Positions 13,555-63,670 of a stretch of 64,000 nt of DNA are shown here, piece after piece. The notes beneath the pieces are model-generated. The model did no database searches, was not told the origin of the DNA, and was given only the letters and a program-made list of their open reading frames with translations. The stretch is from Lineus longissimus (lineage: Eukaryota; Nemertea; Pilidiophora; Heteronemertea; Lineidae). Positions within the stretch are counted from its first letter, which is position 1, and each line of letters starts with the position of its first letter. Made by a program: the position numbers and the translations under genes. Location: positions 1,860,001-1,924,000 of the forward strand of contig NC_088312.1 of the NCBI RefSeq assembly GCF_910592395.1, in the 5' to 3' direction.

Positions 13555-16500
13555 TCAACCAGTAGTCCAACTGAAAAGATCCTCTTTACACACAATTTCT
13601 CGTAATGCGATCCGTTCCAGCTCTAACTTCTGTTGGCAGTATTCTTTACTGAAGGTTGTTAGTCCACAGTCATTCAAATCTGCAGATTCATTGTCACAGT
13701 TCTTATGGAGTAAATTGAAAGAAGTGCTCGAGTCCTGCACCCCGAGTGTTGCGGAGTAATCTCCTTTTTGCGTTGCCTTGAGAAGATCACAGATGAGAAC
13801 CTGGGTGTTGGGCAGAATGGGTCCCTCTAGTTCCATGCTGTAACCTTTCTGGTTTGTCTTGTGAGGCTGGAGGCGGAGGAGACCATGCTTGACCTGCAAA
13901 AGGTAGTATATTACATTAGAGTAACAAGTGCTGTGCAAGTAGTACATATCTCAATGAATTCTTAAGCCAATGTCATATATCATTTGAGATACAACTTTGT
14001 GAACAATCAGCTCATGGAAATACATGTAGCTCAATTTTGACTTGGACCCCACAAGCCAATTTCGACAGAGCCGGTCACACTCATCACCATAGAAAGACTG
14101 GACATCTGTCATTGGGGAAAGGGTCACAAAGAATATATCAAGTACAACTTTGAAGTTGCTTACCTTCAATGATTTTAGCGTTGATCCTTTAAATGCGACA
14201 GGTGCCAGTATCGTTGGTGGTATACCATACTGCACCCCACTGCTAGCAAAACAGCTCCTGCAGTTCAGCAGGTAATTGAACAGGGCCTGGGTACTGGAGC
14301 TTTCTACATACACCGTGGACTCAGGTTTGTTGTCAATGATTTTGTACCCCTCACGCTGCCTGAGTAAATGTTAGGGAAAAGCAAACATTGTCATAGGTTC
14401 AGGTCTTTTGTCGAGGTTGTAAGGCCAGCAAAAAGGTTTTGGCCAAGCCAAACTGCAATATACTTTTTTTTCAGTGGTTCTCAAGTTGTTTTTACTTCTC
14501 ACAATACTTCCCATGATGATGACACTCTTACACGTCACAATGATGCAGTTGCCAATAAATTGTGCAAAGTTTTGAAAATAGTGATTTCGATAATGGTAAT
14601 TTAACTATCGTTTCAAGGATACATTTTGATCTTCTCAGGCCGAAGTTCTGGGAATTTTTTCTTGTCAAGTCCTATACTCTCAAGCCATGACTGAGCCCCC
14701 TCATCTGTCTGGTCAATATCCTCTTCATCCTCATCATCGCATGCTGCCTTGTCTGAATGACTGGTCTCAGCGGGGGCTTGTTGCCTCAAGTTACCCTGGG
14801 TTATGTCCTCCTCTGGCTTAAGTGGCATTGAGAAGTCAATACCTGCGGAGAAGCAAACAAATATGAACATTAAACCATTGAGTAATATGCCCTATTTTAT
14901 AGTATATAAGCTGGAATTTTTATCACAACTACCATAATTGGGTGCTCCTAAAATGAATTGATGACAATTGCAGCAATGATGCTCTCAATCTCTTTCCTAT
15001 CGATTTCTCAGTGAACCAAGCAGACAAGTTTTCAGGAACTTGAAGGTCCTATTGGTGCTGTTTACCTTCATTCCGTAGTGACTCCCTGAAGCCTCTTGTT
15101 GTTGGTGTGACTATGGCATTGAACTGCGGGAGTCCACACACAGCAGACGCCCTGAAGAGCACTGTGAATAGGTGGGTACACATGTAGAAGTAAGGGCAGT
15201 GCTGAGCCTTCAATAACTGGAAAGCTGATGTGAAGCTGTTTGTCCTGGAAAACAAGCAAAATGTGTTTAGGACCGCTACTTGGGTAGAAATTGTAACTTT
15301 ATAATCAAATGTAACACATTTTGTATTACATGACTTATAAAACATTAAAACCGCTGAGAGTGATCAAAATGATATAGGGGAAGTTTATTGTGCTGAATGT
15401 GATCATGCAAGGCATGTGAATTCGACATTCAATGCATTAAAGTTCTATTGTACTTACCAGTCTGTATGCAGCATGTTGATTACACCAATGTGTTTAGGAC
15501 CGCTACTTGGGTAGAAATTGTAACTTTATAATCAAATGTAACACATTTTGTATTACATGACTTATAAAACATTAAAACCGCTGAGAGTGATCAAAATGAT
15601 ATAGGGGAAGTTTATTGTGCTGAATGTGATCATGCAAGGCATGTGAATTCGACATTCAATGCATTAAAGTTCTATTGTACTTACCAGTCTGTATGCAGCA
15701 TGTTGATTACACCTTCGTCTTGTAGTAGAGGAACCAATTTTCTGGGAAAATGGAAATTTCAGATTGTGTTAAAGAAAATGCCACAGTACGCTAATCACAA
15801 AATAAGCTGGACGAATCAAGGGCAAAAGGAACAGTAGCTGTTCAAGGACCACATGGTGGTGGACGATTCTAGCTATGAGATGGGGTTTATTAGGACAACA
15901 CTCACCCTATTTTATTGTCTGTGACCATTCTTGGAAACAACTTCAACCATGGGAGATTTGGGTGCATCCAGTACATACAACACTGCTGAAGGGCTGTCTT
16001 ATGGTCACTAGTCACATCATCCTGCAATGAAGAGAAGAAGTAAGCACAGACTTAAACATCTGCATGAACACTGTCAAATATGACAGCTGGTCCTAACAGG
16101 CTGGAAAAGAAAAGAAAGCTGAGAAGTCAAGGCTCTCGTAGTAATCCTTGTGATCTACCCTAGTGACTGAAGAAGCCTGGCGTCGTACTCAACTCAGATT
16201 AGTTTTCTATAATCTAATAGAGACTGAAAGACTAACCAGAGTTCAACTCCAAAGACCAGATCCATGACAAATCAGCTGGGATACAGTATGCACAGCATAC
16301 TTCTCGGAATCGACATATTCAATGTTACTGACCGGAGAAAAGTCCACCTGCCGAGTTCGAACAAAGGCACTTAGTCCAGCTGCCTCTTCTGTTGTCTTCA
16401 GAGGAGATGACCATGAAAATGGATGAGATGATACAAATCGGATCTTCATTTTCAGACTCCAGTCAAGAGGCAACCTATCTTTTCCACTTGGTAAAGGAGC

Positions 16501-18769: not shown

Positions 18770-19135
18770 AGCTCGTGGCATCCATGACGGTATAGGAATT
18801 GACGGTGAGGTAACAAAAAAACTCGTGGCATATCGGATGCGCATCCGATGACGGTAAAGAAATTGACGGTAAAGGATCTCGTGGCATATCGGATGCGCAT
18901 CCGAAGACGGTAAGGGAATTGACGGTGAAGGATCTCGTGGCATATCGGATGCGCATCCGATGACGGTAAAGAAATTGACGGTAAAGGATCTCGTGGCATA
19001 TCGGATGCGCATCCGAAGACGGTAAGGGAATTGACGGTGAAGGATCTCGTGGCATATCGGATGCGCATCCGAAGACGGTAAGGGAATTGACGGTAAAGGA
19101 TCTCGTGGCATATCGGATGCGCATCCGATGACGGT
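18770..19135. repeat. 56-bp satellite with an 18-bp perfect palindrome per unit
   Basis: Units begin (TCGTGGCATATC...) at 18823, 18879, 18935, 18991, 19047 and 19103, with a degenerate unit before at about 18771. Each carries the self-complementary ATCGGATGCGCATCCGAT or its one-base variant ending CCGAAG. Two unit types alternate: type A has GATGACGGTAAAGAAATTG, type B has GAAGACGGTAAGGGAATTG. The order is A-B-A-B-B'-A, a 112-bp higher-order pattern. An AT dinucleotide run (19139-19162) follows. Confidence 0.92.
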
Positions 19136-19189
19136 TTTATATACATATATATATATTATATAAATGTGCAAGCTCTAGTGAGCTCACAC

Positions 19190-21022
19190 AACTGTTTGAC
19201 AGTCCTGGCTCCTCCATCGTGCTGACAACATGATGAGAGAGATGAGACAGTCACAGCCATTGGCTGCTCTGCCAAGTTGTTAACATGGTGAGAGAGAGAT
19301 GAGGAAGTCACAGCCAGGCCGAATACGTCCTGGCTGCTCCACCGTGTTGACAACATGATGAGAGAGATGAGGAAGTCACAACCAGGCCGAATCAGTCCTG
19401 GCTGCTCCACCGCGTTGACAACATGATGCGAGTGATGAGACAGTCACAGCCAGGCCGCATCAATCTTCGCCGCACTGCCTAGTTGTTAATAAGGCGAGAG
19501 AGATGGGACAGTCAGAGCCAGGCCGAATCAGTTCTGGCTGCTCCACCGTGTTGACAATAATTATGGTGAGAGAGATGAGACAGTCACAGCCAGGCCAAAT
19601 CAGTCTTGGCTGCTCTGCCAAGTTGTCAACATGGTGAGATCGAGAGATGAGGAAGTCACGAGTCTTGGCTGCTCTGCCAAGTTGTCAACATGGTGAAAGA
19701 GATAAGGAAGTCACAGCCAGGCCGAATCAGTCCTGGCTGCTCCACCGTGTTGACAACATGATGAGAGAGGTGAGGAAGTCACAGCCAGGCCGAATCAATC
19801 CTGGCTGCTCCACCGTGTTGACAACATGATGAGAGATGAGACAGTCACAGCCAGGCCACATCAGTCTTCGCCGCACTGCCTAGTTGTTAATATGGTGAAG
19901 GGTGAGACAGTCACAGACAGGCCAAATCAGTCTTGGCTGCTCTGCCAAGTTGTCAACATGGTGAGAGAGATGAGACAGTCACAGCCAGGCCGAATCAGTC
20001 CCGGCTGATCCACCGTGTTCACAACATGATGAGAGAGATGAGACCGTCACAGCCAGGCCAAATCAGTCCTGGCTGCTCTACTAAGTTGTCTACATAGTGA
20101 GAGAGATGAGGCAGTCACAGCCAGGCCGAATCAGTCCTGGCTGCTCTATTAAGTTGTCTACATAGTGAGAGAGATAAGGAAGTCACAGCCAGGCCGAATC
20201 AGTCCTGGCTGCTCCACCGTGTTGACAACATGATGAGAGAGATGAGACAGTCACAGCCAGGCCGAATCAGTCCTGGCTGCTCCACCGTGTTGACATGTAC
20301 AACATGATGAGAGAGATGAGACAGTCACAGCCAGGCCAAATCAGTCCTGGCTGCTCCACCGTGTTGACTTGTACAACATGATGAGAGAGATGAGACAGTC
20401 ACAGCCAGGCCAAATCAGTCCTGGCTGCTCTACTAAGTTGTCTACATAGTGAGAGAGATAATCAGTCCTGGCTGCTCCACCGTGTTGACAATAATTATGG
20501 TGAGAGAGATGACACAGTCACAGCCAGGTCAAATCAGTCTTGGCTGCTCTGCTAAGTTGTCTACATGATGAGAGAGATAGGACAGTCACAGCCAGGCCAC
20601 ATCAGTCCTGGCTGCTCCACCGTGTTGACAACATGATGAGAGAGATGAGACAGTCACAGCCAGGCCACATCAGTCTTGGCTGCTCCACCGTGTTGACATG
20701 TACAACATGATGAGAGAGATGAGACAGTCACAGCCAGCCAGTCACAGCCAGTTTTGGCTGCTCTGCCAAGTTGTCAACATGGCGAGAGAGATGAGGCAGT
20801 CACAGTCAGGCCGAATCAGTCCTGGCTGCTCCACCGTGTTGCCAACATGGTGAGAGAGATGAGATGGTCATAGCCAGCCAGAATCAGTCTTGTTCGCTGC
20901 TCCACCGTGTTGCCAACTTGGTGAGAATGATGAGACGGGTCACAGCCAGGCCGAATCAGTCCTGGCTGCTCCACTGTGTTGACAGCATGGTGAGAGAGAT
21001 GAGGACGGTCACAACCAGGCCA
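19190..21022. repeat. ~68-bp minisatellite, about 27 copies
   Basis: Consensus unit elements in order: ATCAGTCCTGGCTGCTCC, ACCGTGTTGACAACATGATG, AGAGAGATGAGACAGTCACA, GCCAGGCCGA. Two variants intermix, one with CTCCACCGTGTTGACAACATGATG-type centres and one with CTCTGCCAAGTTGTCAACATGGTG-type centres. AGCCAGG and CCTGGCT can pair across the unit junction as a short hairpin. Open frames here are short by-products of the repeat, not genes. Confidence 0.92.
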
Positions 21023-27934: not shown

Positions 27935-28672
27935 TTATCGCAACAGATTAAAAGTTGAGTGTCCTGCATGCACCCCATGGCCGTACATCATATTCCTTGT
28001 TTCATCCTTATAGACATCAGGTATAAATCCTATCGGTGAACTCACCATTTTTACCGTGCTAGCACCACCATGTAGACGCTTTTCAAAATCGATCAACTGC
28101 TTCCAAAATCCTACATTTGGACGGATGACAGAGCGACGTGCTTTCGTGTAATAGTACGCCTCTCGTAAATTCATTCCCTGATACTTCATCAGATACGCCA
28201 TGACGAGGCTGGCAGAACGTGACACACCTGCTACACAATGGACTAGGGTTTTCCCACCGCGACGACGCACTTGGTGGATTTTGTCTGCACAACGATCGAA
28301 ATACGGACCCAGAGAAGCAGTTGGTAAATCATCCACTTGAATCTGTACGCACTCAATATCATGGCATTTTATATTTGCTATTTCAATAGTACAATTTATC
28401 ACAGAAGTTATTCCGAGCTGTCGTAGTCTGTCCATTTTTCTTGCCATTACTCCGCAAAGGAACAAATGATCGTTGATTTGAGCGATCTGGCCGAACGCAC
28501 CTTGATACATCTTGGAACTCTGACTGGACTCACTACAATTATAAAAGGGGAGATACATGTAGTTACAATAGATGAAAATCAGTGTAGTGAAAAACAGTGT
28601 TACACTGTACAATGTTCGAATTCTGAACTTAAACACAAATAAATTTCTTTTGGGAATGGTCCTGAACACCAT
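27935..28672 (-). CDS. Membrane-anchored dual-specificity phosphatase, DUSP14/18-like (single exon)
   Basis: A 245-aa atypical DUSP that should dephosphorylate Tyr and Ser/Thr on proteins. The active-site loop HCVAGVSRSAS has catalytic C146 and R152; general-acid Asp is D114/D115 in VDDLP. The stretch RPNVGFWKQLIDFE and the C-terminal MVSSPIGFIPDVY match DUSP18/21. Unlike those soluble or mitochondrial proteins, residues ~20-42 form a hydrophobic helix (LYSVTLFFTTLIFIY) after a basic N-terminus (KRNLFVFKFRIR). A signal anchor is expected, with a luminal or cytosolic face to be settled. It is intronless, as are many DUSP18/21-type genes. A second, related DUSP lies 4.2 kb away on the same strand. 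Confidence 0.9.
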   Translation of the reverse strand: MVFRTIPKRNLFVFKFRIRTLYSVTLFFTTLIFIYCNYMYLPFYNCSESSQSSKMYQGAFGQIAQINDHLFLCGVMARKMDRLRQLGITSVINCTIEIANIKCHDIECVQIQVDDLPTASLGPYFDRCADKIHQVRRRGGKTLVHCVAGVSRSASLVMAYLMKYQGMNLREAYYYTKARRSVIRPNVGFWKQLIDFEKRLHGGASTVKMVSSPIGFIPDVYKDETRNMMYGHGVHAGHSTFNLLR

Positions 28673-29298
28673 GTATGTTGGCAGGGGGAAATAATGTACT
28701 ATACTTTCATGTTATTTCTTGACATTTTAATCAAACAATTTGAATACAAGTTTTTATTAAATGAGAGAAACAGCAATAAATTTGATGGATTCTTTCCATG
28801 GTTACAGTTTTTGTGCATCATTTTCAACAGAACACCATTAGCAAATAAATAATTGCTATCACGCATTAAGTTTTGATATCCTATTACAACTTGGTACGCA
28901 TTCTTTAATGAGCGTAATGCTATTCACCACCTGGGTCTGCATTCTTTTAATACTCTTTGAAGAACATAAATTTTCTTGGGTAGCTTTTCTTTAACGATGT
29001 AACATTAATATGAATACAGTAGCTGTGTTGATGAATGAAATGTTCATATCAATTGACTGGCATAAAATTCCTTGCTATGCCTTTGTCTTGAACTAAAGAA
29101 CTACCTGTCTGATAACCTAAGGGTGGACCGAGTAGTTCAAATGTTTTTCCAGCATTTTTCCAACATGCATTTTAATGCCAAAAAGATTTTTCAATTTGCA
29201 TTGAAACATTTTATACTAACAAGAGAAACTGGAAATATGGACTCACGAAATTAAATACCCGGTATGTTAAAAGACAATATCAATGCCAAAACACGCAA
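28673..29298. other. Gap between DUSP and fold-back MITE
   Basis: AT-rich sequence holding the presumed 5' region of the DUSP gene. No further gene seen. Confidence 0.35.
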
Positions 29299-29418: not shown

Positions 29419-29659
29419 ATGTCTTTTTTCTGGTATCACAACATTTTATGCCCAAGTAACATGATACTCATAGCTTTTTTCATATGATTTTTCTCTTAAC
29501 ATATTTCCGTTGTTCAATAACAATCAACCACTATATACAAAAAAATATCAGCGGTTGCTATTATAAGCATTCAGATACTATTTCATGGGCATGGCACAGT
29601 ATCTCAAAGTCTGGGCAGTATACTGGTCACACGTTATGAACCACATCGGATGCTAATTC

Positions 29660-30706
29660 ATGCTAGCGAATAAAATGATCAACAAGGGTTGGTTGAATCA
29701 AGCAGAAATGACGTCGAGTGCGAGTGCGGCGTATTATAATTCGACTGCATCATCTGGACATAATGAACCAGACAAACTGGCACTGGACGTCCTGGCAACT
29801 TTACTCATAATTTCTCGACGAGTGTTACCTCCATTTCTCATCATCACTGGCCTTTGCGGGAACTACCTAAGCTACCGGCTGATGAAAAATGATAAGTACA
29901 AAAACTCGACGACCTGCTACTTCATGCGCTGCGTTGCATTTGGGGACACTTTGTATTTGGTCCTCGACGTACTGTTGTCTTATGTAGTGGATTTCATAAA
30001 GGAAGAAGTTATGCAATCAAGTCACCGGAAGGGATTCTGCTTCTTCTACATCTACTGTCTGTACTTTTGTGGCAGCATTTCGCCCTGGTTTCTTGTTGCT
30101 ATGTCAATCGACCGCTTTGTGGCAGTCACCTGGCCGCTGAAAGCGAGGACGTTCTCCACAATCAAGAAAGCCTGGTTTGTTACTGGGTTGATCTATGCTG
30201 TGTCGATCATATGGACACTAACCAACAGTCTGCGAACAAATTTCAATCCGAATTCTGTGTTCATTTGTCCGTTTCTATTCCCGAAACTAGCCAACATGGC
30301 CAAAGTGGCCCGGGCGTTCTACGTGACCTATGTCCCTGTTATAGCTCTCACATTGTTTAGTATTGGTACTGTCTCTGCACTGCAACGAGCGCGGAAACAA
30401 CGAGAAGTACTGAAAACATCGGAAAAGCCCAACTCGGAAAAAGAATCTTCTATAACAAAGATGATGGTCCTAGTTAGCTTGACCTACGTTATCTCGAGCA
30501 TGCCCTTCCGCATTTATGAAGTTTACTACATTTTCAATGAAAGGGTGAGAAATGAATTGACTGCAGCTCAGGATGCATTGATTTATAACCTTGCAGACAA
30601 GTGCGATGCTCTTAATTTCAGCATGAATTTCTATATCTACATTATGGGATGCAAACGGTTTAGATCGGAACTACGAGGATTGCTATGTGGTGTAAATCGA
30701 AATTGA
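29660..30706 (+). CDS. Class A GPCR, FMRFamide-receptor-like (single exon)
   Basis: A 348-aa seven-helix receptor of the plasma membrane, probably for a neuropeptide. The N-terminus carries N-glycosylation sequons (NSTA, NSTT region). TM1 has GLCGNYLS. C127 and C203 can form the TM3-ECL2 disulfide. DRF (151-153) replaces DRY. TM6 reads SSMPFRIYE and TM7 NFSMNFYIY replaces NPxxY. These features fit the FMRFamide-receptor/orphan peptide-receptor expansions of annelids and molluscs. An in-frame Met at residue 17 is an alternative start. An AATAAA at 30816-30821 follows the stop by ~110 nt. The GPCR at 61.8-63.7 kb shares its TM6/TM7 signatures but has introns. The ligand cannot be told from sequence. 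Confidence 0.88.
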   Translation: MLANKMINKGWLNQAEMTSSASAAYYNSTASSGHNEPDKLALDVLATLLIISRRVLPPFLIITGLCGNYLSYRLMKNDKYKNSTTCYFMRCVAFGDTLYLVLDVLLSYVVDFIKEEVMQSSHRKGFCFFYIYCLYFCGSISPWFLVAMSIDRFVAVTWPLKARTFSTIKKAWFVTGLIYAVSIIWTLTNSLRTNFNPNSVFICPFLFPKLANMAKVARAFYVTYVPVIALTLFSIGTVSALQRARKQREVLKTSEKPNSEKESSITKMMVLVSLTYVISSMPFRIYEVYYIFNERVRNELTAAQDALIYNLADKCDALNFSMNFYIYIMGCKRFRSELRGLLCGVNRN

Positions 30707-32894: not shown

Positions 32895-33560
32895 TCATGA
32901 GAAGGGTTTTATGATAAAGAGGGCGCCAATCACTGTCACAGCTAGGGGTATCATCAATAAGAGGATCAACTTCGTCTCCCAAGTCAATCGGCACGAGCAG
33001 ATACCATTTTGGCCAGAACCGTCGATGTGCAGAATACTGGGTACTTCCAATCCACTGTAATTCACCATAGTCACACTGTTAACTCCGTATAAGCGTTTTT
33101 CATACTCGATCAGAATCCGCCAAAATCCTATGTTGGGGTATATCACGGGCCGTTTAGACTTAACAAGTTGGTAGGCATTCTTTAGAGTATATTGGCAATA
33201 TTTCATAAGATATGCAAGGCACACTGTAGCTGAGCGACTAGCCCCTGCGACACAATGTACTAAAGTCCGACCCTTTTCCTGCCGCACCCGGTATATTTTA
33301 TCGGCGCATAAATCCAAGTATGGTTTGATGTTCTCCGCACAGGTGTCATGCACTGGGTACTTTATGTACTGAATATGGCCACAACCCAAATAGACTTTGT
33401 CGAGTTCTATTGCAACGTTCAGTACACATGTGATTCCTAGTTCTAGAAGTCGATCCTTTTTAACTGCTGAGCCGCCGCACAAGTATAAGTAGTCCGTAAT
33501 CGGCGCAATTTGACGGACGTATTTCTTCATGTTGTTTAGTTTGTCTAAGACCTCCTTCAT
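32895..33560 (-). CDS. Tail-anchored dual-specificity phosphatase, DUSP14/18-like
   Basis: A 221-aa atypical DUSP. Catalytic loop HCVAGASRSAT has C103 and R109; the general acid is D72 (PVHDTC). RPVIYPNIGFWRILIEYE is the usual helix after the loop. A C-terminal hydrophobic helix at ~197-217 (LILLLMIPLAVTVIGALFII) ends four residues from the stop, the layout of a tail-anchored protein. A CSC motif just before it could be acylated. The catalytic domain would face the cytosol. A minus-strand acceptor-like CTTCAG at 33606 suggests a 5'UTR intron. It is a divergent paralogue of the DUSP at 28 kb, which has its anchor at the opposite end. Confidence 0.88.
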   Translation of the reverse strand: MKEVLDKLNNMKKYVRQIAPITDYLYLCGGSAVKKDRLLELGITCVLNVAIELDKVYLGCGHIQYIKYPVHDTCAENIKPYLDLCADKIYRVRQEKGRTLVHCVAGASRSATVCLAYLMKYCQYTLKNAYQLVKSKRPVIYPNIGFWRILIEYEKRLYGVNSVTMVNYSGLEVPSILHIDGSGQNGICSCRLTWETKLILLLMIPLAVTVIGALFIIKPFS

Positions 33561-34009
33561 TCTTCATACCTCACTACTGCGGCCTGACGCACCTCGACCA
33601 CAAACCTGAAGGAGCAAAACCACAGAATCAGAGGAAGACCAATACGCCGACATTGTTCATGCTACAGCAACTTTTCACTAAAATATTGAAGTGGTTTCAA
33701 ATCAGCTGTCATGAACTGCGGGGAATTGGGAGTACCAAATTGAGGAGCTATGTCTCCGAAGCATCTTAAGGTGGACGCCATCTCGTGTAACACATTGAGT
33801 GAAGGGGGTTCAACCACGCACCGCCCGACCAATTTCTTTGATCTGACTCTGCATTCTACCATGCCATGTGCAATCAATTTAGCACACCAAAACAGCAACA
33901 TCCGTAGGAACTGGATGATTACCAATTCAAGTAATGTATAATTCAAGGCTTGGCGTAAGAACAGATGACAGCCTACACTACCCGAGGTTCATCCTAGGAG
34001 ACAGCATGG

Positions 34010-47223: not shown

Positions 47224-49090
47224 TTTAGAGAGGTGGGGCCTGCTAGAAAAATATTTGCTGTGGCAAAGAAGAGCGACGGCCAAAGCAGTGCCCACTCTGA
47301 AAAGAGGAAGACTCCATCTATAGCAATGTTTTCTTGATAAAATTATGTCTTCACTCGCAACTTTATTGCTTCTTGTACTTGCAGGGACTCAACGTATAGG
47401 AGACAGTTTCAGCCGTTACTCATTTTGCATCAGTTCTTGACTTCCCGCCCGGAAAGTTTCGCCCGTGGAGCTGCAGTTGGATTACATGTCTCGGACGGGA
47501 ATAAGACTGGGTCACTCCTGAAACAGAAATAGTAAAGACTCCGTGAAATGAAGTGAATCTACGATTGAATTACGGACATTCTAACTCTGACTGCAGTTGC
47601 GGATTATACCCGAATCAAGTCGATCACCGATGAATTGATTGGTCAAATCGACCAACAAATGGGTCCTCGGAGGTAAACGCAGATGCAGTGGATGAGCAAA
47701 TAAGGCAGACTGGAGCGGCATGGCCAGGTCCCTGTTATTGCGGAAGGCACAAAAATAAAATAATAAATTGCTTTAGCGAATGTCAACAAGCGCGGAGCTT
47801 TGCTTACCGTATCTCGGACACTCATCGGGTCGTCGCTACTGTTGATTTGTGGCGTTGCTAGGGTATTGTTGGTGCAAATCGATTTTTTCTTACGGCGAAT
47901 ATTTGTACATTGTCTGAGAGCTGGAAATTGAAGATATTATCGACCGGATAAAGTTGTTGTCGATTGATGAATGAAGTGAATAGGCCGTTTATGAAACACG
48001 ATTACATTGTATACAGCATCGCGCAAGGTCGTTTGCTACATATTCCCCGATATATATATAAATGCAGCTGGCGATGGAGAGCAGTATTTCACACACATTT
48101 GACTCGTTACAGGATTGCCTCTCCATGATGTGCTAATCAATCTAATTGGTCTCAGAGGAGTGTCACTCATACGACAACTAGTTATTCGTGGAAGCTGAAT
48201 CGTGGATGGACAGAGGAACGCCCATGTTGATAGTTTGTATGTCCATTTAGAGCCAACAAAAGGTTTAACTATCAGTTCTTTGGTTACCTTTTGTAGTGAT
48301 TGCAACATCTCATTACTCGTGTGATTGCTATTGATCTCTCGTTTATATCAACAAGGTAGGTGTTAATACAAAACCCTGGCATATATATACGGAATCGTTG
48401 GATCCACTCTAGATTCACTAACGGCTTGGTTGGTATTTTCAAACGAGGATGACATTGGATTACCATTTTTGTGACACAGGCAGAAGCTAGTTTACTTCTC
48501 AGGATAATAGTAAGAATTAGAATCATATAGGTCTATGCATATGCTCGTACACGCAATAGGTATGCTTTCACTTGGATAAAAAAAGGTTTTGTGCAATCAC
48601 GGAGATACGATGTGATCTTTGCCATCTTGTTTTAGAATCCAAATGAAATGTCAGGTGACCGGATGTAGCTGTGGCGCCATCGTAGTTCAGCTTGATGCAT
48701 CTCTACTGATTTGAGGTACCCGATACCCGTATTCTAGTCTGTTTCAAATTGGAATGAACAGTATCGGGCGTGAGGTTTGAATAAGGATTGATGGAAGGTA
48801 TCTGATCAAATGTTGATTGTGCAAAGCAGAATTCAGATTGGTTTTTCAATACGAGCAGCTGAAGAATCAGTCGACCGACCAGGTGTTAAGGTCGATGCCA
48901 GAACGAAAGGGTCTCTCATCTGCTGCACTGGGAGTGATGTACATTAGAGTTGCAATTGAAATGCCCATTTCAATGCAATTGGCAATAAAAGATGCTTGAT
49001 TTGAGCGGTTATTCTTGGAGAGCGGTTATTCTTGAGAATAACCCAAACTTGATTGAAGTATTCTAGCAATGGTCGGAATATCAGCGAGGA

Positions 49091-50560
49091 ATGGAATCCG
49101 ATGGACAAAATGTGATGACGTACAACGAATTCCCGAGTTATTTCTCGGCGTCGCTCGGAGCCTTTTTGATGATAGAGAACATCTTTGGCTTGACCTTTAA
49201 CCTCATGGTTCTGGTCGTCTATCATTTGAGCAGACGGTCATTGACGTCAGTTGGCAACATCATCATTACGAGTCTGAGCATTTTGGATCTTCTTGTTGGA
49301 TTGACCACCATTCCTTTGACATTCACAATCATGGTGACGTCTCGGATGCAGAGCCGTCTGTTCTGCTACTTTCACGAAGCCTCGATTTCGTTTGCGAGTT
49401 CGGCCAGCGCGATTAATCTCATGATGATTAGTTTGGATAGGTATGACACTATAATAACACCACTGAATAGGAAATTAACAATGAATAATGTGAAATATGT
49501 GTTGATATTCATTTGGGTGATTTCGCTTGTCGGATTTTGTACGCCATTTTTTGGCTATGAGGCTTCCGGTACAAGGGATGAAAGATCAATAACGGGTAAT
49601 TTGTCTGAACTGCCGTGCTTCGAATGGTTCAACATATCACGCAAAAACAAATACTTCTATGAACTATATTACGTGATTCTGTACATAATTTCGAACACGG
49701 TGATGATATATTGTTACTTTAGAATATTCCACGAAGCGAAATCAAGACTCAGCTTTCGGACTGCGCTTGTAAAGGCAACATTTCTTAACATTCCCGGGGC
49801 TAGAACAGAAAATTCTTCCGTGCAAGCCTCAAAAGCTCACGAGCGACGAATGACAAAAATGACAATGATGATAGTTAGTACTTTTATGATATGCTGGGGA
49901 CCTCACGCCATATTAAGCGTTGTCATGGTTATTTTAGATAGTACTTTGTTACTAGAACAGTTACAACTATGGTTCTTAGCGCTGGCATATTTCTCCACCG
50001 TGTTGCATCCGCTGCTGTACGCTTTCATGCGGCAGAACTTCCGGCAAGTTTTGACTGATCGGTGGAGAAGCCGGCGCTCGACGATACGCGTTTCTCCTGT
50101 CACCGACGAAGTAAAACAAATATCAATGATTTCTCCGCTGAATGCGACCAGGGATGACAGTCACGCGAGTTATCACCATAATGGACGCTCGGTGTCCGTC
50201 GTTGCCAATAATCACAAAGTGGATACGCCACCAACGGTCATAAGCACGACATCTCGTGTCACTACCATATCCAAACATCAGCGCAGTATCAGCCAGATTG
50301 TTGACCGTGATAGCCATTGCAACTTTGTTCCGTCGAACGGGAGTATGGACTCTCTCATCAGAATTGGCGGGTACACTGGCTCAGGGAGCTTGGCGGCCTC
50401 CCTAGGCGAGAGCATGACCGGACAGTATGTTGTTATCAACTCAGAGAATATAGACAACTTGCCGAGCAATCTTCGTCCATATGTGATAGAGGAAACGTCA
50501 TATACAAAGACTGAAGACAGTCAGGATGAAACTGGTATGACAAGAGTCGAAAGTTCCTAG
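49091..50560 (+). CDS. GPR22-like class A orphan receptor (single exon)
   Basis: A 489-aa seven-helix receptor. The block CYFHEASISFASSASAIN followed by LDRYDTIITPLNRKLTM matches vertebrate GPR22 (CFHEACVSFAS...LDRYDISVKPANRILTM). TM7 HPLLYAFMRQNF also matches the unusual HPLLYAFTRQKF of GPR22 in place of NPxxY. DRY is at 116-118 and a K/R-rich AHERRMTKM precedes TM6, as in GPR22. The C-terminal tail (about residues 320-489) is long and Ser/Thr-rich, much longer than in vertebrates. The intronless coding region also agrees with vertebrate GPR22. An AATAAA lies at 50677-50682. Ligand unknown; vertebrate GPR22 is neuronal and cardiac and couples to Gi. Confidence 0.88.
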   Translation: MESDGQNVMTYNEFPSYFSASLGAFLMIENIFGLTFNLMVLVVYHLSRRSLTSVGNIIITSLSILDLLVGLTTIPLTFTIMVTSRMQSRLFCYFHEASISFASSASAINLMMISLDRYDTIITPLNRKLTMNNVKYVLIFIWVISLVGFCTPFFGYEASGTRDERSITGNLSELPCFEWFNISRKNKYFYELYYVILYIISNTVMIYCYFRIFHEAKSRLSFRTALVKATFLNIPGARTENSSVQASKAHERRMTKMTMMIVSTFMICWGPHAILSVVMVILDSTLLLEQLQLWFLALAYFSTVLHPLLYAFMRQNFRQVLTDRWRSRRSTIRVSPVTDEVKQISMISPLNATRDDSHASYHHNGRSVSVVANNHKVDTPPTVISTTSRVTTISKHQRSISQIVDRDSHCNFVPSNGSMDSLIRIGGYTGSGSLAASLGESMTGQYVVINSENIDNLPSNLRPYVIEETSYTKTEDSQDETGMTRVESS

Positions 50561-52199: not shown

Positions 52200-52559
52200 T
52201 TTATTTCTTGTGTTACCACGCTATTCATATATTTAGGTCAAGCACCATTGAATTTTTTTCAAATGTTCGGATAGTTCAGTCCAGTCCAGTCCAGTTCATT
52301 CCAACAACTGATAAACGTGAGCTACTACAGCCGTCTTGACGATAAGGGGCTCTGAAAGTACAGGAAGAAGGCAACATTTTAATGATCACGGATTCTTTTC
52401 GTGCAGAGCATACTACGGACTTTAATCTTGACGCCTCTACTTTTCAGTCGAATCTTTGCGCGTGAGCCAATAAAGTGATCATCTCAAAAGACTAATTAAA
52501 GGCATTTCATTTTACGAGAAGAATCCAACAATATCATGCACCTTTGCTCTCCTATGTGC
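52200..52559 (-). other. Probable 3'UTR of the Cys-rich gene
   Basis: Lies between the read-through stop at 52560 and the minus-strand AATAAA (52205-52200). No further six-Cys exon is visible. A small 3' exon cannot be excluded. Confidence 0.4.
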
Positions 52560-55500
52560 TTAAAAAATACCATCAAATATTTCAACGGCACATTGAAATA
52601 CGAGATATTTCCTCACCTTTGAATCCTTCACAATTTGAATGATCTTCTCGTAACTTGCGAACTTCACTAGGTCTGACTGGGAAGGAATAGGGGCTGGAAA
52701 AGAAAGTTAAATCATGCAAATATTCAGATGAATTGTGCCCTCCTTATCATGCACATTTGTAACATTCACGAATGAAGGCAAGTGCCTTAATAGCTTGTCC
52801 AATTTATATAAACGATAATGACTATAACTATTTTAATAATGAAAACAATTCTGTTGTCATGAAACTGACTCACCAATTTTGGATTTCGTATCCTCCTCAC
52901 CAACACATTGACCAGCACACTTTAATCCTTCGAACCCCACCTCCTTCAGCCAACATTTGACATCTGTGTGACATTTGTTGAACCAATTCAAGATTATTGA
53001 GACATCCTTCCCGAGACAGCGAGGCATACAGTTCACGAAGTCGTTGTTGACCGGAGCTGAAAAGGTATACTGCTGTCAGTAAATAGTGTAGACGGAAATG
53101 ATGGGAATAATCTGATGGACGTTCTTCTGTTTGGGAAGTCAAATGAATGGAATAATTCTTGATTCTAACAACAACATGGGGAAGGCCATTACCCTTTTTC
53201 AATGACTTTTGATCGTTGAAATCTCAGACTAACTCCCTGAACATAAGAGTAATGTTAGATGGACATTCTTGCGATGAGAACAGATCAATACCCCGCAAAA
53301 TGAATACAGGAATAGCACCGAACAATACTGTGTAGTTTTCCAATGTTCTTATATGGAATGGTTGCAAATAGCAAACTCTTGAATTTGGAAATATCTGAAG
53401 AGTGTAGTTTTGGAAATTAAACGTACTTAATTCCAAAGTCGTACGTATATCTTCCTCATCTTCCCTTGCGAAGAGACAATGTCCAGCGCACTTCAATCCC
53501 TCACTCCCGGCCTCCTTCAGCCAGCATCCGATATTGGTGTGACATTTATTGTACCATGCAAGAATTTCTGAAATGTCCTTCTTTAGGCACTCAGCCATAC
53601 ATTTCAGAAAGTTGTTGTTGACAGGACCTGAAATCATATGAATTAATGTTTATTACAATCAAGATGACCGGGTTTTATGCACTTAAGAAAAGGAAATCGT
53701 TTGTAAAGACTGTTCCGTAGGGCCGGAGACGCAAACATTCACTCTTGATTTCCTCAGGAAGACAGGTGAATATCCACATTAGTCCCATTGGATGCTGATG
53801 GTTTGCCAATGAGCCTCTTCATGTGACAATCGACTGCATTGTATTTCTACCGGTTGCTAATTTTTGTGGCTACTATCAACATGCCACTCATGAAACATTT
53901 AAATAGGCACTTTGTGAAGTTTGGCTGTACAGTGACATTGTTCCCTGCAAGACGTCGTATATATACGGCAATGAATATGAACTGTGCATGAGGTTGGCCG
54001 ACAGTCTCTAAATTAACGATTTTGAGCACAAATACAATGTAGTTATTTATATCATATTAACAGAGCACATGTATTTCTATTGAACAAATTTGTTAATATG
54101 CAACATTAAAGCTAAAAGCATATTGCGTTGTGATCCCTAACTCTATAGTCAGTCGTCTGTTTAACTGTTAAACATACATGCAGACAAAATGCAAACTTTA
54201 CCTGTTTCGATGGTACTAGTTGCAGTCTTCTCATCCAACAAGAAGCATTTTCCGACGCATTTCACTGCTTTCCAACCTGCCTTCTTAACCCAACATGTCA
54301 CACTCTTCTTGCACTCGTTGTACCACTGCTTAATCTCGTTGTAGTCCTTGCCAATGCATACTGCCATACATACGAGGAACCCTATGACTTCTTCTTTATC
54401 AGGCTTTTCAATAGCTTAAATTGGACAGAGAAAACTTAAGCCGTGTGGGAACGAGAGAACGGGAAATACGTAAGTCATGTAAGTGGGAAGGAGAGAACTC
54501 AAATGGGAAAGCTATCAAGTTGCATGGAAGAGATTTATTGGGAGTTGGTTAAGAACTGTCTTGTTGGAAAGAAAGTTACTTAATCAGAAACGAGCCGCAG
54601 TGGTGTTAGTGGCTCAGGTCTCTGACTAGCGATCATGAGGTCTCCGGTTCGTAGATATTATACTGTAACCCAACGTTTACCTTTCAAAACCTTACCTGTT
54701 TCAACAGCAGGAGTAACGGCCATCTCCTGTGTCATGTTGGTCTCCGACAGGATGCACTTTCCGACACATTTCAAAGCTTTCTTGCCGACTTTCTTCACCC
54801 AACACTTCGCCTTCTTCTTGCATTCTTTGTACCACGCCTTGATTTCTGTGATGGTCTTACCGAGACATTTTGCCATACATAGGATAAATCCAGAGTTGTC
54901 TTCAGGCTCAACCAAACCTATACATGAAAAGAGCAAAGGTATACTTAGTGTTAGTATAGACACTCGCTTGTCTCGTGTATGTTGGATTTCGTCTTCGGTG
55001 ACTTCATGGTCTGTTCATGAGTCTGAAGGCAAGATATTATGACTCTGATCTTCTTTCAAAACATTAGAAATTAAATTTGCTTCGCTTCTACCTCCTGGTT
55101 CTGCAGGGATATGTCGAGGCATGGCCTTGCTAGCTCCCTCCCATGCATGATCATCCTTTGTTAGAGTGAGTTCCACGAATACTTTTAACAAAATCTGCGA
55201 AATAAAGAGAAAAGGTTAAGAAACGTACTTTCAGTAGCGAGCAAAGCAGTGGTTTCATCCGCCTTGAGGCATTTTCCAGCACATTTCAGACCCTGCAGCC
55301 CAACCTTCTTCATCCAGCATTTGGCATTTTTCTTGCATTCTTTGTACCATTCTTCCACCTGCTCCAGCGACTTTCCCATACACTTCGCCATACATTTCAC
55401 AAACTCAGGTACATCTGACACAACCAGGGACGAGGACTCGATTGCTGTCAAAAAGGAATAAATACATTCCGAAGATGAATTGTCATGGCAGCTTGTCTCG

Positions 55501-57733
55501 TGTATGTTGGATTTCGTCTTCGGTGACTTCATGGTCTGTTCATGAGTCTGAAGGCAAGATATTATGACTCTGATCTTCTTTCAAAACATTAGAAATTAAA
55601 TTTGCTTCGCTTCTACCTCCTGGTTCTGCAGGGATATGTCGAGGCATGGCCTTGCTAGCTCCCTCCCATGCATGATCATCCTTTGTTAGAGTGAGTTCCA
55701 CGAATACTTTTAACAAAATCTGCGAAATAAAGAGAAAAGGTTAAGAAACTTACTTTCAGTAGCGAGCAAAGCAGTGGTTTCATCCGCCTTGAGGCATTTT
55801 CCAGCACATTTCAGACCCTGCAGCCCAACCTTCTTCATCCAGCATTTGGCATTTTTCTTGCATTCTTTGTACCATTCTTCCACCTGCTCCAGCGACTTTC
55901 CCATACACTTCGCCATACATTTCACAAACTCAGGTACATCTGACACAACCAGGGACGAGGACTCGATTGCTGTCAAAAAGGAATAAATACGTTCCGAAGA
56001 TGAATTGTCATGGCAGCTTGTCTCGTGTATGTTGGATTTCGTCTTCGGTGACTTCATGGTCTGTTCATGAGTCTGAAGGCAAGATATTATGACTCTGATC
56101 TTCTTTCAAAACATTAGAAATTAAATTTGCTTCGCTTCTACCTCCTGGTTCTGCAGGGATATGTCGAGGCATGGCCTTGCTAGCTCCCTCCCATGCATGA
56201 TCATCCTTTGTTAGAGTGAGTTCCACGAATACTTTTAACAAAATCTGCGAAATAAAGAGAAAAGGTTAAGAAACTTACTTTCAGTAGCGAGCAAAGCAGT
56301 GGTTTCATCCGCCTTGAGGCATTTTCCAGCACATTTCAGACCCTGCAGCCCAACCTTCTTCATCCAGCATTTGGCATTTTTCTTGCATTCTTTGTACCAT
56401 TCTTCCACCTGCTCCAGCGACTTTCCCATACACTTCGCCATACATTTCACGAACTCAGGTACATCTGACACAACCAGGGACGAGGACTCGATTGCTGTCA
56501 AAAAGGAATAAATACATTCCGAAGATAAATTGTCATGGCAGCTTGTCTCGTGTATGTTGGATTTCGTCTTCGGCGACTTCATGGTCTGTTCATGAGTCTG
56601 AAGGCAAGATATTATGACTATGATCTTCTTTCAAAACATTAGAAATTAAATTTGCTTCGCTTCTACCTCCTGGTTCTGCAGGGATATGTCGAGGCATGGC
56701 CTTGCTAGCTACCTCCCATGCATGATCATCCTTTGTTAAGAGTGAGTTCCACGAATACTTTTAACAAAATCTGCGAAATAAAGAGAAAAGGTTAAGAAAC
56801 GTACTTTCAGTAGCGAGCAAAGCAGTGGTTTCATCCGCCTTGAGGCATTTTCCAGCACATTTCAGACCCCGCAGCCCAACCTTCTTCATCCAGCATTTGG
56901 CATTTTTCTTGCATTCTTTGTACCATTCTTCCACCTGCTCCAGTGACTTTCCCATACACTTCGCCATACATTTCACAAACTCAGGTACATCTGACACAAC
57001 CAGGGACGAGGACTCGATTGCTGTCAAAAAGGAATAAATACATTCCGAAGATAAATTGTCATGGCAGCTAAGGGTGCTTTTCTGATTACGTGATTTCACA
57101 GAGGCTGTGAAAATATGGTCTCATTCGCAATTGACAGCTGATTTCTTGGCATGTATCAATCGAAACGGCATCATCAACCTTCAGAGGCAAAGGCTAAAGC
57201 AAGAGACTAGATACTGTAATTCTTGGGATTGAAATGTATTGCCACCTACCGGTCCACACCAATAGCTCTTCAGGGGCGGGGTCCTTGCATCCACTGGCAC
57301 ATTTCTGCACTCTGTCACCGAGATGCTCCCCCCAGCAAGTTGCTGAGTCCTTGCAGATCTTGTAGACCGCTGTCACACGATCTTGCTCGCCTCCTCCAAT
57401 AAGGCATTTGCTCATGCACCCGACGAAAGTCTCGTCATTTCTCGTGGATGGAGCTGAAAGTGCGGGAGAGATTTTAGTTTGCTGTTTGCATTGAATGTTC
57501 GTTGTGGCGATTAGATCCGCCTCCAACAGAATCAAGCCTGCTACAGTCACTTGTAGCCAATTTGATTATAAAAAAGAAGTTTTCAAACCTGCAATTTTAG
57601 TTGACAAACTGGTTAGGAGCATAAAGGACGGAAAATCTAGGAATTTGTCGCGATAGTTACTACCATCGAACTTACCAGCTGATGAAACTGCAACAGAAAC
57701 CAGAAGGATCGTGATGAAGTAGACCGATGTCAT
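52560..57733 (-). CDS. Secreted multidomain cysteine-rich protein, nine six-Cys repeats (unrecognised family)
   Basis: Exon 1 (57733-57676) encodes a signal peptide (MTSVYFITILLVSVAVSSAG). Nine exons follow, each one domain: 57453-57250, 57020-56805, 56494-56279, 55969-55754, 55444-55229, 54917-54696, 54414-54202, 53627-53427, 53056-52874. A short helical exon starts at 52693 (PIPSQSDLVKFASYEKII...). It either splices at 52617 or reads to a TAA at 52560-52562, so the 3' end is uncertain. All domain exons are phase 1-1, so they add or drop without breaking frame. Spacing is C-x3-C-x14-C-x5-C-x11-C-x3-C (x16 in the first domain), with W-[YF] before C3 and W just after C4. Domains are Lys-rich (CKKNAKCWMKKVG) and linkers acidic or Ser/Thr-rich. 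Predicted secreted protein of about 680 residues. The CxxxC pairs recall helical-hairpin peptides, but I cannot place the family; structural, defence or venom-like roles are all open. A minus-strand AATAAA lies at 52205-52200. Confidence 0.82.
54600..54660 (+). other. tRNA-like fragment (possible SINE head) in an intron of the Cys-rich gene
   Basis: TTAGTGGCTCAGG resembles a Pol III A box and GGTCTCCGGTTCG, ~37 nt downstream, a B box. The order and spacing are as in tRNA-derived SINEs. The rest of a cloverleaf is not convincing, so a functional tRNA is unlikely. Confidence 0.3.
54966..57067. repeat. Four near-identical 525-526 bp tandem units, one Cys-rich exon each
   Basis: Units start (GCTTGTCTCGTGTATGTTGG) at 54966, 55491, 56016 and 56541. 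Each contains a 216-nt domain exon plus flanking intron, and the copies differ at only a handful of bases (for example CTGCAG/CCCGCAG in the exon and GTACG/GTAAG at the donor). The fourth unit stops being similar at about 57067. The duplication breakpoints lie in introns. Confidence 0.95.
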
Positions 57734-58877: not shown

Positions 58878-60191
58878 TCATCTTAGAACCTTATCGCGTT
58901 CCCCTGGTCCAAATATGGCGTTCTTGGTATTCAAAATTCGCCATATTCCTTTTTTCATCAAATTGCACTCAAAATTTGATAGCAGTTTGCAATTCTTGAC
59001 TTTCCGACTTCCAAACCAAAGCTGGTGTTGCTCATCCAACAAAAGTCCGGGGATTGTAGCCACACAGGAGCAATAGTACAGCAGATCTAGTTCGTCAAAC
59101 CTTACTTCTGGAGCACGCGACCAGGGGTAGTATCTGCTACTATTAAATGGGTACAGGTTCACCCGCTCGACTTTGAGCTTCACGGCGCAGAAAGATATGT
59201 AAGCATCTTCTAAATGGAAGTACGGGATTTGCTGCGAGATTTGAACAATATCCAAAGCTGTTTGAAGAGTCATGAGGTACCCCGCATTCGGGGAGCAACT
59301 CTTCGAGTAGTATTTGAGAGGATATGATTGGTAGCTCACGAATTGTGGAGATGTCTTGTCTCTGTTAACAATCGAAACATCTCTGCAATGTCCAACGATT
59401 TTATAGGTCAAGTCATTTGTATCTATAATTTGGAAAAGATTTCGAATGTTTATCAAAATATCATCCGCGCTTCTCATCACGTACTTTGCATCCGGGCAAT
59501 TCTGCACCGCCCAATTTAGGGCAAATATTGCCTTAAGCGTGAGATTACTTCTTGAGTCCCATAGGCCACTCACAATAATGTCGCCATGTTTTTTACTCTC
59601 CGAAGGCGCTCCTTGCCGGCCTAACACAAAATATATGCGAACATTTGAGCTATTTCCCCACGTTTCACGAATAAGAAATCTCCTAAAGGTGTCCTGTGCC
59701 TGGCTGAAAATCATGATCACAAGTCCACCTTCATCTTTTCCAAATTGGCACTTCTTGCTTCTATTTGGGCCTCCCTCTTTTTTCTCACTGACTTCTCCCC
59801 TCCGTCGTTGGGGTGACTGCTGCAATTCCAGAGGGAAACAGTCGGTGCATTTTATCTTCTCAATGTAGTCCAGAGCGGAATCTTCTGCGAATGCCCGCTG
59901 CCATGTATCCGAAACTTTAGACCATATCATCAAAGTCAGGATTACAACTATAAGAACATTAATCCGGCACGCCCAGCTTGAATAGACTATCCTCTGGCGA
60001 ATGATCTTGGGGTGACAATTCTGAAAGATATATAAATATGTATGCATAAATTCTATTGTCATCACTTATACAGACACGACTGATCAGCCAAGATATCAAG
60101 ATCCTTTATACTTTCTCATACACCTTGTGGATATTGCGGTACTTACCCGCATTGTGAGGTGGCGCATCGTCAGTTGCGCTGTCCGCATCAT
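58878..60191 (-). CDS. Divergent GT31 (beta-1,3-galactosyltransferase-like) type II membrane glycosyltransferase (2 exons)
   Basis: Exon 60191-60147 encodes MMRTAQLTMRHLTMR, then GTAAGT. It joins in frame to 60020-58878 after TATCTTTCAG; total 395 aa. A single hydrophobic anchor at ~34-49 (INVLIVVILTLMIW) gives Golgi type II topology. Family motifs: RETWG at 133-137, YFVLGR at ~145-150, ADDILIN at 200-206 in place of the usual DDDxxxN (first Asp is Ala), and EDAYIS at 286-291 for EDVYVG. The enzyme should add a hexose in beta-1,3 linkage to a glycan in the Golgi, but the altered DxD motif leaves activity uncertain. Upstream of the chosen Met the frame is closed by TAG with no other ATG. A read-through start in the intron (60065) gives the same length by chance. 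Confidence 0.8.
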
Positions 60192-61772: not shown

Positions 61773-63670
61773 TCAAGTGTTCCTTTTGACCGATTGCGTA
61801 CATGCTGAAATATCATCATGCTTTTTTTCTTTGCACATGAAGCAGACTTTCAAGATGTTGACCGCATCATTTCGGAACTTTTTTCCACCAATACAATAAA
61901 GATAAAAGTTTACACCAAAATTAAGAATCCATATATCAGCTAGGATAATGTACCCAACCTTATAACGCATGAACCAGACAACCTGGCCAAAATCCCAAAT
62001 TTCCTTTAGAGCCGGGAGATCAAACAGCATCTCGTACAGGCGCAGCGGGATGGAGCAAACGACGTATGCGCTGCTGACTAGTATGAGCATGCGTGTTAGA
62101 TGACTTGTTTCCTGTTTCCGTTTTGCGTCGCTGGGAGCAGATGAACCAGTCATCTGTTTGTGTTTGTGTGATGCTCGTTTGACTGTGATTATGATCCAGA
62201 TATTCATAAACATGATGACTGCAAATGGTATGAGAGTCCCGAAGAACAGCTGGAACATTGAGCCAAACATCTCCAGGGCTGGATTGCCCTTTACATCCGG
62301 CTGGACTGATTCAACACCTTAAAAAGAGCAATCCAAGCACGTGGCCTGCCATGGTCAGAAGTCAACATTTCAATTCGTCCCAGGGTCACCAACATTCTAC
62401 TCCCATGAGTACAAGTAGCAAGCTATTGCTGTCGACGTTGCTCTCAACAGTCGTAGAAAGCGCTTTCCTATCATTGACTATGCCGTTAGTGAGGTCCATT
62501 CAGTGACAAGATTATTTCCCGGACATTCTATCGTACGGTAGGACAATTAACTTTTTTGACAACGACATGACCCGTGGAAGACGTTTGAAATATGTTGTGC
62601 TTTGATTAAAGCACAAGAGGCATATGCATGATGACTATGATCTCCTGGCCTCGCCATATACCCTGGATTATTGTGTCTAAGAGGTAAAGGGAGAGGGTCA
62701 GGAGATGAACAACATGCCTGGGCAAGCTTCCTGGATAAAGGCCAGTAAGTTAAAAGTGAATGATGAGTTAAAATATAAACAGTGCAATAAAAGTCTGCTA
62801 ACGTTTGTACCCTGTTTCAACATACTTACCAGTGCTTTCATCAAAGTTGTATTTATATACAAAGAGAACGTTAGAGTTGAGACCAAAAATTAGCACGAGG
62901 GTCATGAACACTGTGACCTTGGCTCTTGCCGTTGTGCAGATTCGTCCTGCCGCCATTGGGAATCTGACAACAATCAGACGATCCACCGACATCTCCATAA
63001 GAAAGAACCCGGATGAAATGGCAAACGAGTACTCCAGGTACCAAATAACCCTGAAAATGTATTTTGTTATAGTGGCTGATGAAAGAAATTAATGGTAGTG
63101 CCTTCAAAAACGCCGCCCGAGAAAGGATTCGGCGAGTCTCATGTCTTATTCCGGTGAGCCCTTGCTCCCCCCGCCAGCTAAGCCCATGCCCATTACACGA
63201 GGGCAACTAAGATATGGAGGCGAATCAAGCTCTTCAGTTGGTGACTGGTCCAGACCATAACCTATCGGGAAAGGTCGGTCACGAACGAGTCACAAACGCA
63301 TCGGCAACAGCTGATTATTTCCAACAACTGTGATTTCCGAACCTGCGATGGTGACTTACTCCAAAAACTTTCCGATGTTGCCACCAAGAAAATTCCTCAC
63401 CGGATCAGACTCGAAGACAACGGCAATGGTATCGCCCGTCAAGAAAGTCATGGTGTCCACCACTGCCAGTGCCGCCATGTATACGGATGTTGATATCCTC
63501 CTGTTGTCACTACGCATGGTAATCAGGAATGACATAATATTCCCCGGAAGGCCTATAACGGTGGCGACGTAGTATAAGTAATTCAGGGCAATCCAGTAGA
63601 TCGTCTCCAACAGCTGCACCTCCCCAGATTTGGTCGTGCAGGGGACACCAGTCGTTACAGAATTATTCAT
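61773..63670 (-). CDS. Class A GPCR, FMRFamide-receptor-like (3 exons)
   Basis: Exons 63670-63360, 63050-62830 and 62317-61773 join in frame to 358 aa with GT-AG introns (phases 2 and 1). Seven helices are visible: TM1 GLPGNIMSFLI, TM2 AALAVVDTM, TM3 ending SVDRLIVVRFP (DRL 127-129 for DRY), TM5 LIPFAVIMFMNIWIII, TM6 SSAYVVCSIPLRLYE and TM7 NFGVNFYLYCIGG. NFYLY replaces NPxxY. An N-terminal sequon (NNSV) is present. TM6-TM7 closely resemble the single-exon GPCR at 29.7 kb, so the two are paralogues in a lophotrochozoan-type peptide-receptor group. A minus-strand AATAAA (61690-61685) lies ~83 nt past the stop. Confidence 0.87.

What the first reader, a model, noticed from the sequence alone, without database searches (positions are those of the whole stretch)
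52560..57733. Undescribed-looking secreted protein built from nine six-cysteine Lys/Trp-rich domains
Every domain keeps C-x3-C-x14-C-x5-C-x11-C-x3-C (first domain x16), with conserved W-Y before C3 and W after C4. Lys-rich helices alternate with acidic linkers. The signal peptide and one-domain-per-exon layout point to a modular secreted protein. I cannot match it to any named domain. Candidate roles (host defence, mucus or shell matrix, venom-like cocktail) are inference.
Basis: partly seen in the sequence, partly recalled or inferred. Interest (0 to 1): 0.88.

Follow-up and report, generated by a model that had tools for sequence, protein, structure and literature searches.

The report
Nine-module cysteine-rich ribbon-worm secreted protein
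A bootlace-worm gene encodes a probably secreted protein made of nine copies of a small, disulfide-rich, mostly positively charged helical module that matches no named family in the libraries searched, and a second gene carries about thirty more copies joined by mucin-like linkers; its role is unknown, most likely in the worm's slime or defence.

Summary
On the minus strand, 57733-52560, a leader exon, nine domain exons and a tail exon join in one open frame (692 aa). All ten introns are GT-AG and phase 1, and every domain keeps C-x3-C-x14(16 in D1)-C-x5-C-x11-C-x3-C. Diverged domains show purifying selection. The genome is that of the bootlace worm Lineus longissimus, chromosome 5.

No Pfam-A model, PDB sequence or PDB fold matched convincingly. 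Two AlphaFold models show the same four helices. The large protein database was switched off, so "undescribed" is not fully tested.

New here: a chromosome 14 locus carries 32 cores of the domain, 27 in a 512-bp array (17 of 27 identical over the unit) with Thr-rich, sequon-rich linkers. With one query domain, no third locus rose above noise.

Best guess: a multivalent, cationic secreted mucus protein that binds polyanions. Main rival: a precursor of helical antimicrobial or cytolytic peptides, laid out like plant alpha-hairpinin precursors. Function is inferred only.

The parts
57676..57733 (-). Exon 1: start codon and signal-peptide-like leader
   Evidence: donor gtaagt, phase 1; hydrophobic N-terminus (mean Kyte-Doolittle of residues 2-18 is 1.89); no signal-peptide predictor was run
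57250..57453 (-). Domain exon D1 (C-x3-C-x16-C-x5-C-x11-C-x3-C), most diverged, near-neutral core
56805..57020 (-). Domain exon D2, core net charge +9
   Evidence: AlphaFold2 model of this domain
56279..56494 (-). Domain exon D3, near-identical copy of D2
   Evidence: 3 of 216 exon differences to D2
55754..55969 (-). Domain exon D4, near-identical copy of D2
   Evidence: 2 of 216 to D2, 1 of 216 to D3
55229..55444 (-). Domain exon D5, near-identical copy of D2
   Evidence: 2 of 216 to D2, 0 of 216 to D4
54696..54917 (-). Domain exon D6, core net charge +12
   Evidence: query of the genome search
54202..54414 (-). Domain exon D7, core net charge +6
53427..53627 (-). Domain exon D8, core net charge +1, sister of D9
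52874..53056 (-). Domain exon D9, core net charge +2
   Evidence: AlphaFold2 model
52560..52693 (-). Tail exon: ~45-residue C-terminal segment with one unpaired Cys, and the stop codon; an alternative donor at 52616 would shorten it
   Evidence: AATAAA/ATTAAA signals on the minus strand at 52426, 52383 and 52205

Best explanation
SHOWN: a gene on chromosome 5 of Lineus longissimus encodes nine tandem copies of a small six-cysteine module behind a signal-peptide-like N-terminus. One further locus of this family was detected, on chromosome 14, with a signal-peptide-like exon and about thirty modules joined by Thr-rich, sequon-rich linkers. PREDICTED: each module folds into four short helices. 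INFERRED: nested disulfides C1-C6, C2-C5 and C3-C4 staple the first and last helices, whose CX3C pairs face each other as in helical hairpins. INFERRED FUNCTION: both proteins are secreted whole, like beads on a string, into the epidermal or proboscis mucus. There the stable, mostly cationic modules act together as a multivalent binder of polyanions (acidic mucin glycans, sulfated polysaccharide, microbial surfaces), so that the chromosome 14 protein is a mucin-like slime component and the chromosome 5 protein its shorter, little-glycosylated, charge-balanced partner.
For: Gene structure and pattern. Second locus: of 44 matches, 33 lie in C14:11657496-11674736, 9 are this gene, 2 are noise; profile matches; 32 cores. 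C14 linkers: 33% Thr in the array unit, 4 N-glycosylation sequons per 83-residue unit, and one 82-residue stretch that is 50% T+S+P. The cationic core is kept in the bulk of copies of both loci although the linkers differ: +8 to +12 in D2-D6, +10 in the C14 array unit. The linkers between the nine domains hold no pair of basic residues; the KK pairs lie inside domains and the one RK pair in the tail, which speaks against cleavage at dibasic sites. Two models with four helices. L. longissimus releases substantial amounts of mucus when provoked (PMC5864730, passages), and mucins are reported from other nemerteans (PMC7460313 and PMC9132205, passages).
Against: There are no expression, proteomic or biochemical data. 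The chromosome 5 linkers are acidic and only 15-32% T+S between domains, with a single sequon in the whole protein, so this protein itself is not a classical mucin. D1, D8 and D9 are nearly neutral. The C14 locus holds broken exons, one domain exon without an in-frame donor, and two array units whose spacing is off by one base, and I built no full gene model for it, so it may be partly decayed. Disulfide pairing was not seen, because no coordinates were returned. Other secretory sites (gut, gonad, body fluid) are not excluded. That the two genes work in one tissue is pure inference.
Confidence: 0.4

Rival explanations
1. Precursor of cationic helical defence peptides. The acidic linkers neutralise the cationic modules until unknown proteases release them as antimicrobial or membrane-lysing peptides, in the manner of plant alpha-hairpinin precursors or as multi-module kin of the nemertean cytolysins.
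For: Cores of D2-D7 at +6 to +12 between linkers of -2 to -6. [quoted passage not shown] ours has linkers of 18-29 aa between domains and a short tail. Nemertean A-toxins are very Lys-rich with three or four disulfides, parborlysins were modelled as all-helical, and a parborlysin fraction permeabilises bacterial liposomes (PMC6410017, PMC11126048, passages).
Against: No pair of basic residues in the linkers between domains. The chromosome 14 relative has glycosylatable Thr-rich linkers, unusual for a propeptide. Three of nine modules have nearly no net charge. In the one plant cassette tested the uncut form had very little activity, so processing would be required. Cytotoxin A-III measured by CD has 37% helix and 14% sheet, not the all-helical content predicted here.
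Confidence: 0.28
2. Multivalent venom or toxin protein of the SCREP type: tandem modules bind one receptor or channel with high avidity.
For: Architecture fits the published SCREP description of secreted cysteine-rich tandem repeats (PMC6262176, abstract, section 6 and passages), and the animal is a toxin-bearing nemertean.
Against: Most tandem-repeat toxins named in that abstract are two-domain spider peptides. Nine and about thirty modules, many near-identical, suit a matrix protein better. No resemblance to a solved toxin was listed by sequence or fold.
Confidence: 0.12
3. A diverged member of a named six-cysteine helical family (saposin-like, nemertean cytotoxin A or another) that the available libraries cannot reach.
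For: The symmetric cysteine order allows the nested 1-6, 2-5, 3-4 pairing of saposin-like proteins (recalled), and the models have four helices. Large sequence databases could not be searched.
Against: No Pfam match at E<=0.1 for any of 13 single domains; no PDB sequence match below E=0.4; no fold match with E<=0.001 among 19 and 25 hits.
Confidence: 0.15
4. Artefact: the exons are unrelated open frames or pseudogene pieces not joined in a transcript, or the copy number is an assembly error.
For: No transcripts seen. D2-D5 and the C14 array are nearly identical, which can strain an assembly. Some C14 exons are broken.
Against: Ten consecutive phase-1 GT-AG introns and one open frame, purifying selection, 0 chance matches in 30 simulated windows, 79-fold long-read coverage of the published assembly (PMC8593623, passages).
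Confidence: 0.03

Closest known systems
Plant alpha-hairpinin multimodular precursors (Sm-AMP-X, Tk-AMP-X, EcAMP)
   Same: Signal peptide, many small helical CX3C...CX3C modules in tandem, linkers of similar length (16-27 aa in EcAMP), short C-terminal segment (PMC7191063, passages)
   Different: Alpha-hairpinin motif is C-x3-C-x4-20-C-x3-C, or a 6C form with three CX3C-spaced cysteines on each side (PMC11591084, passages); here 32 residues, two of them further cysteines, lie between the CX3C pairs. The chickweed, wheat and barnyard-grass genes are described as intronless; here each module is an exon. No such chain among the PDB hits.
Nemertean cytotoxin A / parborlysin (worm cytolysin family)
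   Same: Secreted in heteronemertean mucus, Lys-rich, three disulfides in A-II, A-III and probably most parborlysins, parborlysin modelled as helical (PMC6410017, PMC11126048, passages)
   Different: Single proteins, parborlysins of about 88-97 residues with net charge +16 to +19; here a 692-residue protein of nine modules of about 70 residues. Sequences were not at hand, so homology was not tested.
SCREPs (secreted cysteine-rich repeat proteins)
   Same: Secreted tandem repeats of one disulfide-rich domain (PMC6262176, abstract, section 6, passages)
   Different: SCREP is an architectural class, not a homology family; the domain here is unmatched and predicted to be helical.
Gel-forming mucins with cysteine domains between PTS stretches (recalled)
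   Same: The chromosome 14 relative alternates a cysteine module with Thr-rich, sequon-rich linkers in a nearly identical tandem array
   Different: No known mucin domain was matched in the domain exons scanned, and the chromosome 5 gene in the window has acidic linkers and one sequon.
Neurotoxin B-IV / nemertide beta helical hairpins (solved structure 1VIB)
   Same: Small disulfide-cross-linked helical protein of heteronemertean mucus (PMC6410017, PMC5864730, passages)
   Different: Eight cysteines, about 55-57 residues, single domain. Not among PDB sequence hits of the profiles at E<=10; I did not check separately that 1VIB is in that copy.

Membership tests
SCREP (architectural class) | Secreted (signal peptide) | tested here: met
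   Hydrophobic N-terminal exon ending ...SSA before the first domain; by inspection, no signal-peptide predictor was run
SCREP (architectural class) | Tandem repeat of a cysteine-rich domain | tested here: met
   9 of 9 domains with six Cys each; definition from PMC6262176 section 6
Plant alpha-hairpinins | Cys motif C-x3-C-x4-20-C-x3-C, or the 6C form C-x3-C-x3-C-x4-20-C-x3-C-x3-C | tested here: not met
   Here C-x3-C-x14-C-x5-C-x11-C-x3-C against the motif in PMC11591084
Plant alpha-hairpinins | Helix-loop-helix module | tested here: inconclusive
   Models show four helices in D2, and four plus a low-confidence fifth in D9
Nemertean cytotoxin A / parborlysin | Single small protein (parborlysins ~88-97 residues) | tested here: not met
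   692-residue nine-module protein against PMC11126048 Table 2; release of single modules not testable
Nemertean cytotoxin A / parborlysin | Sequence homology to cytotoxin A-III | not tested
   No cytotoxin A sequence was fetched or typed; none was met in the libraries searched
Saposin-like proteins | Recognised by a Pfam saposin model | tested here: not met
   No saposin model among the Pfam hits listed for 9 and 13 members (filters drop most matches above E about 0.1)
Saposin-like proteins | Saposin fold with nested disulfides 1-6, 2-5, 3-4 (recalled) | tested here: inconclusive
   Fold comparisons decide nothing; pairing not observable
Gel-forming or secreted mucins | Long Pro/Thr/Ser-rich O-glycosylatable stretches | tested here: not met
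   Not met for the window gene (15-32% T+S in linkers between domains); the C14 relative has them in part (33% Thr in the unit linker, one 82-aa stretch 50% T+S+P)

The most novel reading that the evidence does not exclude
A new, lineage-restricted disulfide-stapled four-helix domain is the building block of a previously unrecognised class of ribbon-worm slime proteins. One gene is a mucin-like concatemer of about thirty homogenised modules; the other is a nine-module polyelectrolyte of alternating cationic knots and acidic linkers. Together they form the cross-linked, antimicrobial matrix that carries the worm's known toxins.
Probability: 0.25. Interest if true: 0.68.

Novelty: new variant of a known kind. 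Interest (0 to 1): 0.5.

Why it matters
The bootlace worm is known for abundant toxic mucus, and the passages read here on that mucus concern mainly its small toxins. A defined, testable protein family with recognisable module peptides would let existing mucus proteomes and transcriptomes be re-read for structural or antimicrobial matrix proteins. The module is also a small disulfide scaffold without a detected solved relative, and the 512-bp array looks like a clear case of concerted evolution of protein-coding exons.
Full report
WHERE IT IS. The window is G000:C5:1860001-1924000 of a genome of 391,118,348 bases in 30 contigs. The paper on the bootlace worm Lineus longissimus gives 391 Mb in 32 scaffolds for its first version, and its Table 2 sizes agree to about 0.01 Mb with the five contig lengths seen here: C6 21.66, C8 20.96, C9 20.54 (table 20.55), C13 16.85, C14 16.76 Mb (PMC8593623, passages; contig lengths).

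THE GENE. On the minus strand, eleven exons from 57733 to 52560 join into one open frame of 692 codons plus a stop. All ten introns have GT donors and AG acceptors and lie in phase 1, so each domain exon is symmetric and can be duplicated or skipped without loss of frame. Exon 1 is a hydrophobic leader. Exons 2-10 carry one domain each. The last exon gives a tail of about 45 residues with a single Cys. An earlier donor in the tail exon makes the C-terminus uncertain.

THE DOMAIN. Nine of nine domains keep C-x3-C-x14-C-x5-C-x11-C-x3-C, with x16 in D1. Besides the six cysteines, invariant in all nine are a Phe three residues before C1, the Met after C1, the Trp after C4, one Gly and the Lys before C5. 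The exact x14 pattern was found 8 times in the window and 0 times in 30 simulated windows. Six of eight exon pairs computed have dN/dS of 0.15 to 0.45; the other two were saturated at synonymous sites. D2-D5 are near-identical: exons differ by 0-3 of 216 bases; the introns that follow differ by 1 to 6 of 309 among D2-D4 and by 28 to 30 when the last one (D5) is compared. So the gene grew lately by tandem copying of an exon with its intron. No other copy of the domain lies in the window.

CHARGE. Cores of D2-D6 carry +8 to +12, D7 +6, D1, D8 and D9 only +1 to +2; the linkers between domains carry -2 to -6. There is one N-glycosylation sequon in the whole protein, and no pair of basic residues in the linkers between domains.

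FAMILIES. Pfam-A gave nothing credible for any domain, nor did PDB sequences, nor a one-pattern scan of GTDB species genomes.

A SECOND LOCUS. Searching the worm's own genome with D6 gave 44 matches: 9 in this gene, 33 in C14:11657496-11674736 (one of them with a stop inside), and 2 at noise level. A profile of the nine domains confirms the C14 matches, the best at E=9.2e-18, and adds one more upstream at 9.7e-07 that lacks part of the pattern. A pattern search counts 32 cores, one of them with a lost cysteine and one with x15. Twenty-seven lie in an array of 512-bp units; measured over the whole unit, 17 of 27 (reference included) are identical, 24 of 27 differ by at most 3 bases, one by 25, and two have spacings of 511 and 513 bases that shift their linker. 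Some exons at the array's ends are broken or diverged, and one domain exon showed no in-frame donor; I built no full gene model. A signal-peptide-like exon lies upstream. The array exons checked are again phase 1 on both sides. Linkers in the array are 33% Thr, each unit has 4 sequons, and one linker of 82 residues is 50% T+S+P. The unit core keeps a charge of +10. A tree of 14 domains separates the two loci (82/93, rough, fork drawn as open), so each array probably expanded on its own. Genome searches with other query domains did not complete, so further relatives may exist.

HOW IT MOST LIKELY WORKS. What both loci share is the leader, the module, its cysteines and, in the bulk of copies, a strongly positive core; what differs is the linker. 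That suggests the module is the working part and valency matters. My best-supported reading is a secreted multivalent polyanion binder in mucus (0.4), with the chromosome 14 protein mucin-like. The strongest rival is a precursor of cationic helical defence peptides (0.28): the layout of leader, tandem CX3C modules, linkers of similar length and a short tail is strikingly that of plant alpha-hairpinin precursors, where the one uncut cassette tested was nearly inactive (PMC7191063, passages). The lack of dibasic sites and the glycosylatable linkers of the relative count against it. A multivalent toxin (0.12) and a hidden member of a known family (0.15) remain open.

AGAINST THE KNOWN. The alpha-hairpinin motif (PMC11591084, passages) is not met. 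Nemertean parborlysins are single proteins of about 88-97 residues with +16 to +19 charge (PMC11126048, passages), so this is not one as it stands, though common descent was not tested. It meets the loose SCREP description (PMC6262176, section 6), which is an architecture and not a family. Papers on nemertean toxins and mucus seen in passages (PMC6410017, PMC9415933, PMC10674772, PMC9132205, PMC11768458, PMC7460313, PMC12846013, PMC5864730) did not mention such a protein in the passages seen; figures and supplements were not seen.

VERDICT. The added value is the species, the second array locus and the mucin-like clue. Novelty is rated as a new variant of a known kind: a probably undescribed domain in a familiar architecture.

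Noticed in passing
G000:C14:11658599-11672162 (loci L034-L036): 27 exon-plus-intron units of about 512 bp, 17 of 27 identical over the whole unit: strong concerted evolution or very recent expansion of coding exons.
   Followed up: partly
L034:8100-8340 and L036:2500-2680: Broken or degraded copies of the domain exon at the edges of the C14 array (stops or shifted frame). Described only.
   Followed up: no
window 58881-60065 (-): Galactosyltransferase (PF01762, E=3.7e-30) open frame about 1.1 kb upstream of the gene; a glycosyltransferase next to a secreted-protein gene, perhaps by chance.
   Followed up: no
window 49067-50557 (+), 29657-30703 (+), 61776-62318 (-): Three open frames matching the rhodopsin-type GPCR model.
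   Followed up: no
window 27938-28711 (-) and 32898-33563 (-): Two single-frame dual-specificity phosphatase open frames some 4 kb apart.
   Followed up: no
window 18822-21022: Long degenerate tandem-repeat arrays with periods of 56 and about 68 bp, and a perfect 227-bp duplication at 15260-15713.
   Followed up: no
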